From positions 2,795-27,389 of the IMG/VR virus record IMGVR_UViG_3300039106_000214: a DNA stretch of 24,595 bases; one strand, written 5' to 3'. The notes below the pieces were generated by a model. That model had not been told where the DNA came from. It did not search any database and was given only the letters and a program-made list of their open reading frames with translations. Origin of the DNA: a virus. The stretch's first letter is position 1. Every line of letters begins with the position of its first letter. A program made the position numbers and the translations under genes. Of this stretch, positions 10,477 through 13,273 are shown piece by piece.

Positions 10477-12108
10477 ATGCCTTTAATACAGGTAAAAGGA
10501 ACTGGACAGATAGGTCTTAATCGAGACCTATCACAGCATGAAATGCCAACTAATGCTTGGAGTGATGCAAAAAATATTAGGTTTTTAGATGGCTATGCTT
10601 TGCAGTATTTAGGGCATGGTGAGGTCTATAACACTCCTTCTTATGCACCACTCCATGTATTGCCTTGTAATGTTAAAGGAAATCGTTATTGGATTTATTT
10701 ATCTAACTACAAACAATTTTCAGTTACTAATACACCAACAGGTTCACAGCATACTGATATTACCAACACATCATGGAATGGTTATTATCTTGATCTTATT
10801 ACTGAATCTGGGCTTACACTTATTGCTGAAAGCGGTGAAACATTAATTAATGGTGGTGTTGGTAATCCAATGAGTTGGACATCTGCTTTATTATCAGGTG
10901 TTCCAGTCATTAATGCAGCAGATAGTAACTTTCCACCAATGGCATGGAACCTTAGCAATTCATCAAAGTTTATAAGCTTACCAAACTGGCCTAGCAATAT
11001 GTATTGCAAATCAATTAGGGCTTATAAAAACTTTTTAATTGCTTTAAATGTCACCAAAGCAACAGCTGCTTATCCTTATATGGTGAAGTGGTCACAACCA
11101 GCAGACCCTGGTGGATTGCCGTCAACATGGGATGAAACAGACCCAACTAACATATCAGGTGAGTTTGACCTTGCAGAAGGATATGATGTTGTTGTTGATG
11201 GCATGCAGTTACGTGATTCATTCATAGTGTATAAAGAAAATAGTACATGGAGATTAGATTATGTTGGCGGTAATTATGTATTCAAATCATCAAAGGTATT
11301 TAACAAATCAGGTATCATGAATCGCAATTGCGTTACTGATATTGATGGTTTTCATGTTGTATTAACAAATAATGACGTGATTATTCATGATGGAAGTACA
11401 GCACAATCTGTTCTTGATAAAGCAACAAGAAGATGGTTATTTCAAAACATAGATGTTGATAATGTAAGCAAATGTTTTGTATTTACTAATCCATTCTTCA
11501 ATGAAGTATATATATGTTTTCCTTCAATAGGAGCAACATCTTGTGACACATCACTTGTATATAATTACAAAGATAAAACTGTATCAACTCGCCAAATGCC
11601 TAATATTAACCATGCAGGATATGGTCCTGTTGATAATGGATTAACAGGTAATTGGGCGCAAGATTCTCAACCGTGGGCATCTGACTTAACATTATGGAAT
11701 GGACCAGATTTTGTTCCAAGTAATGCTCGAGTTATTGCTGGAAGTTCTGATGTTAAACTATATATGCTTGATGCTTCTGCATCGTTTGATGGTGTACTTC
11801 CACAAGCATACTTAGAACGAAGAGGATTATCGTTTGAAATGCCAGAAAGCATTAAGTTGATAAAAGGTATTAGGCCAAGAATAACGGGCAACATAGGCGA
11901 TACAGTGCTTATACAAGTAGGTTCTCAAGACGATCCATGGGGCAATCCTACTTATTGTGATCCTATGACACATACTATAGGCACAACAATTGCTAATGAT
12001 TGTTTAGTGTCTGGCCGATATATTTCTATTAAGTTCTTAACTGGTACAGCATACCAATGGCGGTTAGATTCTTTTGATATTGAAGTTGAAAAAACTGGAG
12101 GTTGGTAA
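10477..12108 (+). CDS. tail nozzle-like protein (tail tube protein B type)
   Basis: This 543-residue product is expected to form the nozzle at the end of the short tail below the adaptor ring. The N-terminus (GLNRDLSQHEMPTNAWSDAKN followed by the FLDGYALQYLGHGEV strand, given in part) and the middle (QLRDSFIVYKENSTWRLDY, FHVVLTNNDVIIHDG) show the beta-propeller-like repeats of podovirus nozzle proteins, which are about this length. The large aromatic and Asn/Asp content fits. There is no signal peptide. It begins one base after the preceding stop, without an obvious Shine-Dalgarno sequence, so coupling is likely. Its 3' end contains the GGAGG of the next gene. Confidence 0.82.
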   Translation: MPLIQVKGTGQIGLNRDLSQHEMPTNAWSDAKNIRFLDGYALQYLGHGEVYNTPSYAPLHVLPCNVKGNRYWIYLSNYKQFSVTNTPTGSQHTDITNTSWNGYYLDLITESGLTLIAESGETLINGGVGNPMSWTSALLSGVPVINAADSNFPPMAWNLSNSSKFISLPNWPSNMYCKSIRAYKNFLIALNVTKATAAYPYMVKWSQPADPGGLPSTWDETDPTNISGEFDLAEGYDVVVDGMQLRDSFIVYKENSTWRLDYVGGNYVFKSSKVFNKSGIMNRNCVTDIDGFHVVLTNNDVIIHDGSTAQSVLDKATRRWLFQNIDVDNVSKCFVFTNPFFNEVYICFPSIGATSCDTSLVYNYKDKTVSTRQMPNINHAGYGPVDNGLTGNWAQDSQPWASDLTLWNGPDFVPSNARVIAGSSDVKLYMLDASASFDGVLPQAYLERRGLSFEMPESIKLIKGIRPRITGNIGDTVLIQVGSQDDPWGNPTYCDPMTHTIGTTIANDCLVSGRYISIKFLTGTAYQWRLDSFDIEVEKTGGW

Positions 12109-13124
12109 TGGCTGGATTATTAGAATGGTTATCTAATCAAAAAAATTCTGCTGCAAATGATTATGCGGACTTAATTAGTAATTATCCTAATGCTCAAAAG
12201 TTTGGTAAAGGATTGATAAACGCAATTTCTGAGCATATTCCAACACAACAAGATTATCAATCTCCAGAAAAGATGATTGATTTTGGTATGTCTGTTGCGC
12301 CAATGGGAATGACTGTTAAAAATACAAACGCCAAGTTGCTTAAAAAATACTTAGGCACAGGAAAGTTATCTCCAAAAGAAATGGCGGAATATGAAGCCAA
12401 TGCACTAGAAATGGAAACGCCACAGTTGCAAAGGTATAATGTGCAAAATGCTATGGCTAATCCTGAAAGACAAGCATATAAAGAAACTTTAAATGTTCCT
12501 GTTTATCATGGAACTAATGACGTTATAACTTCACCAGATTATGCTTTTAGTGGAAAAGGGGCAGATCAATTAGGTAGTGCAGCACTATATACATCAGAGC
12601 AACCTAGTTTAGCTAATGGATTTGTTAAACCTGATATATCAGGAGGAAATGTATTGCCATTGGCATTAAGAAACACAAGTAAATACATGTCTGATGAATT
12701 AGAAAAGAAATTAACACCAGCACAATTAAGAGAGTTTATTACTAAGTCACCTGATGAATATGCTTTATCAAATTTTGGTGATGTAGGATATGAAGGAAAA
12801 AATAAAGTAATTAATACTGCTGTACAAGGTTATCACCAATATGGTGATGAAAAGTTACTTGATACTTTAAATTCATTAAACAATGATTTTTATACAGGTC
12901 ATCCAGAAGAATTTAATAAGTTAGCAGAAAAATTAACTAAGAAAGCTGGTGTCGTTATGGATACTGGAGAAAATAAAATTTATGCTTCTTGGAATCCTAA
13001 AGACATACGCTCTCGCTTTGCAGCATTTGATCCACTAAGAAAAAACAGTTCTAGTTTGTTAGCCAGTGGTTTACTAGGCTCACTATTACTTAATAATGAA
13101 ATGAAAAACTCGGAGAATAGATAA
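12108..13124 (+). CDS. virion-region protein with ADP-ribosyltransferase-like domain
   Basis: I choose ATG 12108 (338 aa), because GGAGG at 12097-12101 lies six bases upstream and the TAATG overlap with the nozzle stop is typical; an upstream TTG at 12102 is less likely. Residues 1-110 are helical and virion-like. From about 131, VYHGT (132-136) followed by GSAALYTSEQPSLANGF (156-172) matches the H/Y-x-GT and aromatic 'Yt..' motifs of ADP-ribosyltransferases found in phage polyvalent and MuF-type proteins. IRSRFAAFDP (300-309) is their usual C-terminal signature. A clear catalytic glutamate was not identified, so activity is uncertain. The hydrophobic tail SSLLASGLLGSLLL ends the protein. It may be injected with the DNA and modify host targets. 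Confidence 0.72.
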   Translation: MAGLLEWLSNQKNSAANDYADLISNYPNAQKFGKGLINAISEHIPTQQDYQSPEKMIDFGMSVAPMGMTVKNTNAKLLKKYLGTGKLSPKEMAEYEANALEMETPQLQRYNVQNAMANPERQAYKETLNVPVYHGTNDVITSPDYAFSGKGADQLGSAALYTSEQPSLANGFVKPDISGGNVLPLALRNTSKYMSDELEKKLTPAQLREFITKSPDEYALSNFGDVGYEGKNKVINTAVQGYHQYGDEKLLDTLNSLNNDFYTGHPEEFNKLAEKLTKKAGVVMDTGENKIYASWNPKDIRSRFAAFDPLRKNSSSLLASGLLGSLLLNNEMKNSENR

Positions 13125-13273
13125 TGCCAACAAAATCAAAGAAACAACAAAAGTTAATGCTTGCAGTTGCTCACAATAAAAAGTTTGCAAAAAAAGTTGA
13201 TATCCCAATGTCTGTTGCTAATGATTTTATAATTGCAGATAAAAAACTTGGTTTATTAAAATCTCTTAAATAA
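13124..13273 (+). CDS. small basic phage protein, 49 aa (KSKKQQKLM type)
   Basis: ATG 13124 overlaps the previous stop by one base, and the stop at 13271-13273 overlaps the next ATG by one base. The 49-residue protein reads MPTKSKKQQKLMLAVAHN, then KFAKKVDIPMSVANDFIIAD. This matches a recurrent tiny phage protein that I know from many genomes ('MPSxSKKQxxFMxAxAHNPxFAKKxGIPxSVAxDFxxAD'). Its function is unknown. It is strongly basic with a helix-turn-helix-like spacing and might bind nucleic acid, but that is a guess. Confidence 0.85.
   Translation: MPTKSKKQQKLMLAVAHNKKFAKKVDIPMSVANDFIIADKKLGLLKSLK

What the first reader, a model, noticed from the sequence alone, without database searches (positions are those of the whole stretch)
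12108..13124. ADP-ribosyltransferase-like domain in a virion gene
The protein between the nozzle and the appendage genes has VYHGT and a following YTSEQ, with a C-terminal IRSRFAAFDP signature. In MuF and polyvalent phage proteins these motifs mark ADP-ribosyltransferases that can be injected with DNA. The N-terminal third looks like a virion-attachment part and the C-terminus is hydrophobic. A delivered effector made with the tail would be an interesting host-takeover strategy. No catalytic Glu was clearly identified, so activity is open.
Basis: partly seen in the sequence, partly recalled or inferred. Interest (0 to 1): 0.65.

Follow-up and report, generated by a model that had tools for sequence, protein, structure and literature searches.

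The report
Swappable ADP-ribosyltransferase in phage tail operon
Between two tail genes of an uncultured short-tailed phage lies a gene for a protein with an ADP-ribosyltransferase fold (an enzyme type that attaches ADP-ribose to other molecules), and in related phages this catalytic core has been exchanged for others while both ends of the protein stay the same, as expected of a customisable weapon carried with the virus particle.

Summary
ORF 12108-13124 (338 aa) overlaps the nozzle gene's stop codon and carries VYHGT, YTSEQ and IRSRFAAFDP. The ART reading holds. Pfam's ART-PolyVal model is sub-threshold for this protein, but close relatives exceed it (92, 53, 45 bits; cut-off 31). AlphaFold2 gives pLDDT 84.5. 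The best viral matches are ART-PolyVal proteins (E 4e-13), and the best solved match is the anti-CRISPR ADP-ribosyltransferase AcrIF11, though weakly. His134 and Tyr161 sit at conserved active-site positions. The third, acidic residue is absent at both places where relatives keep it (Ala280, Ile291). Ile at the second is also found in mono-ADP-ribosylating PARPs, so activity is open. The unexpected part is modularity. In eight related phages the linker and C-terminal tail remain 72-88% identical in DNA, while the core is unalignable in all but one. Three other phage groups show the same pattern. Conversely, related cores occur between unrelated flanks. The N-terminal module is also joined to a metallopeptidase-like effector in one phage. 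Presence in virions and injection are inferred from operon position only. I read it as a new variant of the known polyvalent-protein effectors: a swappable, late-operon ART.

The parts
12108..13124 (+). CDS, 338 aa modular protein: N-terminal module, linker, ART core, hydrophobic tail
   Evidence: dN/dS 0.08 versus L002
12097..12101 (+). GGAGG ribosome-binding site 6 nt before the ATG, inside the end of the nozzle gene
   Evidence: read directly
12106..12269 (+). N-terminal module; same DNA (91.5%) begins the metallopeptidase-like effector gene of L002
   Evidence: window 12106-12269 = L002 1356-1519
12336..12482 (+). Linker (..LLKKYLGTGKLSPKEMAEYEANALEMETPQLQRYNVQNAMANPER), DNA conserved in related phages that have different cores
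12495..13004 (+). ART-PolyVal-type core (residues 130-299), the exchangeable cassette
   Evidence: AF2 pLDDT 84.5 on residues 118-310; fold matches; profile E 1e-8
12507..12509 (+). His134, strand 1 active-site position (H in 41 of 43 relatives)
12588..12590 (+). Tyr161, strand 2 active-site position (Y 30, F 11, H 2 of 43)
12717..12938 (+). Helical insertion (residues 204-277) typical of this sub-family (..SPDEYALSNFGDVGYEG..NNDFY..)
12945..12947 (+). Ala280 where 31 of 42 relatives have the Asp of GYDG
12960..12971 (+). Asp285 and Glu288, nearest acidic residues in the loop between the last two main strands (possible substitutes)
   Evidence: inference
12978..12980 (+). Ile291 at the position of the PARP catalytic Glu
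   Evidence: plus comparison with the PARP motif in PMC7955679
13005..13124 (+). C-terminal flank: IRSRFAAFDP (final ART strand) and hydrophobic tail, 83-88% identical DNA in related phages with different cores
13124..13273 (+). 49-aa MPTKSKKQ.. gene overlapping the ART stop; follows the ART gene in the window and eight further contigs
10477..12108 (+). Nozzle protein gene, upstream and overlapping (context)

Best explanation
The gene encodes a modular late-operon effector. Residues 1 to about 125 are a phage-group-specific module and linker; residues about 130-309 are an ART-PolyVal-type ADP-ribosyltransferase core with a helical insertion; the last 30 residues are a conserved hydrophobic tail. 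Shown: the ART-type fold (prediction), homology to ART-PolyVal, conserved His and Tyr, purifying selection, virion-operon position, and exchange of the core between conserved flanks. Inferred: the flanks (perhaps with the co-travelling 49-aa MPTKSKKQ protein) place the protein in the particle; it enters the next cell with the DNA; there it uses NAD+ to mono-ADP-ribosylate a host protein, most plausibly in transcription/translation takeover or defence evasion; and homologous recombination in linker and tail lets phages trade cores to match hosts or defences. My estimates: ART fold 0.95, active enzyme 0.65, packaged and injected 0.6, core exchange real 0.95.
For: AF2 model of residues 118-310 has pLDDT 84.5, pTM 0.81; the best viral structural matches are annotated ART-PolyVal (E 3.9e-13, TM 0.70); the PDB list is led by AcrIF11 (6kyf, prob 0.91) and includes tankyrase 2, MbcT, diphtheria toxin and PARP10/12/13. 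The family profile finds only ART superfamily chains in the PDB at E<=1 (15 of 15). Relatives L058, L034 and L040 pass the ART-PolyVal cut-off with 92, 53 and 45 bits, and a profile built without this sub-family finds the window protein at E 1e-8 (Z set to 20000). His134 and Tyr161 are conserved. Core exchange. Virion-operon position in several slots. The N-module is fused to a HEFQH metallopeptidase-like protein in L002.
Against: Direct Pfam score is below cut-off (18.5 against 31.2 bits). No PDB fold match reaches E 0.001 (best 0.019; TM 0.34/0.45). Neither candidate acidic position is acidic (A280, I291). No proteomics, activity or host data. Some exchanged cores (L018, L024, L028, L029) were not recognised as ART by sequence. 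No isolated relative with the same N-module was found, so delivery rests on gene position alone.
Confidence: 0.62

Rival explanations
1. Active ART made late but acting in the producing cell (host shut-off, superinfection exclusion, defence suppression) and never packaged.
For: Solo homologues of the same sub-family sit among tRNA-rich, non-structural genes of jumbo phages, so the fold does not require packaging. Late position alone does not prove virion incorporation.
Against: In most podovirus-like relatives the gene lies among virion genes, in several different slots, with stop-start overlaps; the flanks are conserved independently of the enzyme.
Confidence: 0.22
2. Catalytically dead ART-like domain used as a binding or virion-decoration module.
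For: The acidic third residue is lost at both conserved positions, as in pseudo-enzyme ARTs.
Against: His134 and Tyr161 are retained; dN/dS 0.08; Ile at the PARP-Glu site is characteristic of mono-ADP-ribosylating PARPs (PMC7955679); AcrIF11 works with H-F-H-D (PMC12421852).
Confidence: 0.12
3. Polymorphic toxin-immunity pair, the 49-aa downstream gene being the immunity protein.
For: A small overlapping ORF follows the ART gene in the window and eight further contigs, as described for MuF polymorphic toxins (PMC5576092).
Against: The small protein is identical in phages with different cores (L003, L018, L024, L025), unlike a core-specific antidote; it also occurs in phiKZ and as the N-terminus of proteins annotated as virion structural.
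Confidence: 0.04

Closest known systems
ART-PolyVal (PF18760) / Tox-ART-HYD2 clade of polyvalent proteins (Iyer et al. 2017, PMC5512222)
   Same: Fold, His in strand 1, Tyr in strand 2, the ..PxxIRS..FDP C-terminal motif (..QIKS..N.GtFDP in the wider family), association with LPD23, metallopeptidase, GNAT and ParB-like modules in related phages
   Different: Compact 338-aa single-core protein; helical insertion; the GYDG Asp is lost; core swapped between fixed flanks
AcrIF11 anti-CRISPR ADP-ribosyltransferase (PDB 6kyf; PMC12421852)
   Same: Best solved-structure match; phage ART with a variable helical region and a non-canonical active site (H-F-H-D)
   Different: AcrIF11 is a small solo protein expressed in the cell; about 11% identity; TM 0.34/0.45 only; target unknown here
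T4 Alt, head-packaged injected ART (described in PMC5512222)
   Same: Proposed mode of action: ART travelling with the virion
   Different: Alt belongs to the R-S-E clade with a different active site; packaging is demonstrated for Alt, not here
MuF polymorphic toxins of temperate phages (PMC5576092)
   Same: Conserved virion-linked N-part with variable effector part, ART and metallopeptidase among the effectors, small ORF downstream
   Different: No MuF domain; both ends conserved and the middle variable; no matching immunity gene; no bacterial or prophage copies found

Membership tests
ADP-ribosyltransferase superfamily | ART fold (split beta-sheet) | tested here: met
   AF2 pLDDT 84.5; viral fold matches to ART-PolyVal proteins at E 4e-13; the top PDB hit and most of the leading ones are ARTs, though none below E 0.001
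ART-PolyVal (PF18760) | Profile score above the gathering cut-off | tested here: not met
   18.5 bits against 31.2 for the window protein itself; relatives at 92, 53 and 45 bits
ART-PolyVal (PF18760) | Homology to accepted members over the whole domain | tested here: met
   Chain window - L037 (about 50%) - L058 (33%, 92 bits full profile); independent profile E 1e-8 over model positions 2-130 of 139
ART-PolyVal / Tox-ART-HYD2 | His in strand 1 and Tyr in strand 2 | tested here: met
   His134 in strand 130-136, Tyr161 in strand 160-163
ART-PolyVal / Tox-ART-HYD2 | Asp in strand 5 | tested here: inconclusive
   The conserved Asp column is Ala280 in the window; Asp285 closes the same predicted strand; which residue the published 'D' denotes could not be settled
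Any ART enzyme | NAD+-dependent ADP-ribosyl transfer | not testable with these tools
   Needs a biochemical assay
Polyvalent proteins (Iyer et al. 2017) | Several effector domains in one polypeptide | tested here: not met
   Only one recognisable effector domain in the window protein; relatives L010, L013 and L022 do combine two, L029 probably
Polyvalent proteins (Iyer et al. 2017) | Encoded among late virion genes | tested here: met
   Between nozzle and fibre-like genes; other virion slots in relatives
Injected virion effector | Present in particles and delivered to the host | not testable with these tools
   No proteomics; position only
MuF polymorphic toxins | MuF domain encoded next to the portal gene | tested here: not met
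   No MuF match in Pfam or PHROGs; gene lies after the nozzle gene

The most novel reading that the evidence does not exclude
Podovirus-like phages keep a dedicated effector slot in the virion operon: invariant delivery ends (N-module/linker and hydrophobic tail) with an internal enzyme cassette that homologous recombination swaps between phages, ADP-ribosyltransferases being frequent and metallopeptidases occurring with the same N-module. The particle's injected payload would then be polymorphic, without an immunity partner, and some cores would work as H-Y-I mono-ADP-ribosyltransferases aimed at variable host or defence targets.
Probability: 0.45. Interest if true: 0.72.

Novelty: new variant of a known kind. 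Interest (0 to 1): 0.52.

Why it matters
Phage ARTs such as T4 Alt and AcrIF11 rewire or disarm the host, and polyvalent proteins have been predicted to be injected. Recombinational cassette variation was suggested in 2017 (PMC5512222, for a kinase-containing system) as a possibility. Here closely related phages show it at DNA level for ART cores: flanks 72-88% identical, cores unrelated. If the flanks are the delivery signal, they give a portable tag for finding, and perhaps loading, injected phage effectors, and the set of cores becomes a catalogue of candidate anti-defence enzymes.

Tried and rejected
Full-length AlphaFold2 with ten sequences gave a useless model (pLDDT 51); adding polyvalent relatives solved it. 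Direct PDB sequence search found nothing. Two scans of 84,980 bacterial and archaeal genomes, with the N-module and with the core sub-family, found no relative, so no host or prophage link. PADLOC gave no hit. MuF membership was rejected. The downstream small gene as immunity protein was rejected because it is identical beside different cores. A shared N-terminal signal with a neighbouring late protein (MAGLLDWLSKQK and MAGLLDYLSNLK in L013) was the best non-family match among about 7000 starts but was not convincing in the other loci; kept as a lead. The A7 alignment was too diverse for a locus scan. A first version of the flank/core script failed on a motif pattern and was rerun.

Full report
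What was checked. The ORF exists as stated: ATG 12108, stop 13122-13124, 338 aa, overlapping the upstream stop codon and preceded by GGAGG. The upstream gene is a nozzle protein of SU10/LUZ24-like short-tailed phages (PDB nozzle entries E 1e-44; best match E 9e-86; SU10 7z47 E 1e-21). The portal (PF23899, 669 bits) and adaptor (PF24175, 102 bits) are SU10-type. G000 is a 27,389-base viral record.

Is it an ART? The window protein scores only 18.5 bits against ART-PolyVal (cut-off 31.2), so I tested membership through relatives. Jumbo-phage proteins found by tblastn (E down to 7e-6) align along the whole domain and score 42.8, 45.4 and 53 bits. The IMG/VR protein L037 (about 50% identical core) leads to L058, a giant polyvalent protein whose domain matches the full ART-PolyVal profile with 92 bits. 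A profile built from 26 polyvalent ARTs without any IRSRFAAFDP protein finds the window protein at E 1e-8 (database size set to 20000). The family profile against the PDB gives 15 chains at E<=1, all ART superfamily (diphtheria toxin, PARP10/12/15, PARP13 and others), each weak on its own.

Structure. AlphaFold2 on residues 118-310 with 43 sequences gave pLDDT 84.5 and pTM 0.81, with His134 in strand 1, Tyr161 in strand 2 and a helical insertion 204-277 before the last main strands. Viral fold search: 46 matches at E<=0.001, led by ART-PolyVal proteins (E 3.9e-13, TM 0.70). PDB: best is 6kyf, probability 0.91, E 0.019; PMC12421852 identifies 6KYF as AcrIF11, an anti-CRISPR ADP-ribosyltransferase; tankyrase 2, MbcT, diphtheria toxin and PARPs follow, mixed with a few unrelated large proteins. 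No PDB match is below E 0.001, so the solved-structure evidence is supportive, not decisive.

Active site. Across 43 relatives H134 is His in 41, Y161 is Tyr in 30 and Phe in 11. Iyer et al. describe the clade as His strand 1, Tyr strand 2, Asp strand 5 (PMC5512222). The column that best fits, the Asp of GYDG (31 of 42), is Ala280 in the window and Lys or Ser in several relatives with the IRSRFAAFDP tail. The position of the PARP Glu is Ile291; only 7 of 43 relatives have an acid there. Ile at this place is characteristic of mono-ADP-ribosylating PARPs (PMC7955679) and AcrIF11 uses H-F-H-D, so loss of the acid does not prove inactivity. D285 and E288 in the adjoining loop are candidates. Selection is strong: dN/dS 0.08 between window and L002 over residues 132-338.

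The IRSRFAAFDP signature. It is the last ART strand and what follows: the wider family has QIKS..N.GtFDP at the same columns.

Cassette exchange. Searching with the C-terminal 49 residues fetched 27 loci. In the window's own group (window, L002, L003, L013, L018, L024, L025, L028, L029) the 60-residue linker is 51-80% identical to the window's (nucleotides 72-86%) and the first 32 residues of the tail 84-97% (nucleotides 83-88%), while the cores cannot be aligned as DNA except in L002, the one phage with the same core (92%) (local alignments). Three further frameworks repeat this: L016/L036 (tail 100%, linker 81%, core unrelated), L017/L020 (tail 100%, linker 83%), L010/L012 (tail 87%, linker 79%). 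The converse also holds: the window core (about 50%) sits in the unrelated flanks of L036 and L037, and the core of L025 (54%) in those of L020. In L002 the window's N-module (91.5% DNA, 12106-12269) begins a different gene, a 377-aa protein with HEFQHAIQ and a weak LPD23 match, next to the ART gene. Other relatives add GNAT (L013, sub-threshold), ParB-like (L029, weak) or LPD23 (L008, L010, L022) modules. Not every exchanged core is shown to be an ART: L003 and L013 are near the cut-off, L018, L024, L028 and L029 are not recognised.

Position. The gene lies among virion genes in different slots: after the nozzle (window, L013), after a 479-aa virion-gene candidate (L028), at the end of the late operon after the ejection-protein-like genes (L003, L024), between an adaptor-like and a 508-aa gene (L017, L020), and before a portal-like gene (L016) (assignments in the last three cases by position and resemblance only). 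In L037 and L038 it follows lysis-type genes. Such neighbourhoods have been read as a sign of packaging (PMC5512222, PMC9503650), and SU10 releases five kinds of ejection proteins from its head (PMC9509320). None of this shows that this protein is in virions. Jumbo-phage homologues lie among tRNA genes, so the fold alone does not imply packaging.

Companion gene. A 49-aa MPTKSKKQ gene overlaps the ART stop codon; homologues follow the ART gene in L003, L018, L019, L023-L026 and L030, identical in sequence although the cores differ, and precede it in L020. The same short sequence begins proteins annotated as virion structural in jumbo phages (PHROG 22033, 25121; GAP32_317) and stands alone in phiKZ. 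An immunity function is therefore unlikely; a role in assembly is a guess.

Verdict. Novelty: a new variant of a known kind.

Noticed in passing
window 13124-13273; L003 5261-5398; L020 4563-4742: 49-aa MPTKSKKQ/MPSKSKAQ gene travels with the ART gene, is identical beside different cores, and occurs as the N-terminus of jumbo-phage proteins annotated as virion structural and as phiKZ 165.1.
   Followed up: partly
L002 1358-2491: 377-aa protein with the window's N-module and a HEFQHAIQ zincin-like motif plus weak LPD23, placed directly after the ART gene: two effectors in tandem, one N-module shared with the window.
   Followed up: partly
L013 4852 and 9475; window 12108 and 17115: Effector and a neighbouring late protein start alike (MAGLLDWLSKQK / MAGLLDYLSNLK; MAGLLEWLSN / MGLLDSLSN), perhaps a shared N-terminal signal.
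   Followed up: partly
L025 4705-6153 and L020 4735-6207: A 300-residue core of unknown fold (HGTERLDRLLS.., only weak ART profile match) is shared at 54% by two phages with unrelated flanks.
   Followed up: no
L058-L061: Very large polyvalent proteins (1923-2733 aa in the part held) carry the same ART sub-family with the FGDVNYEG insertion.
   Followed up: no
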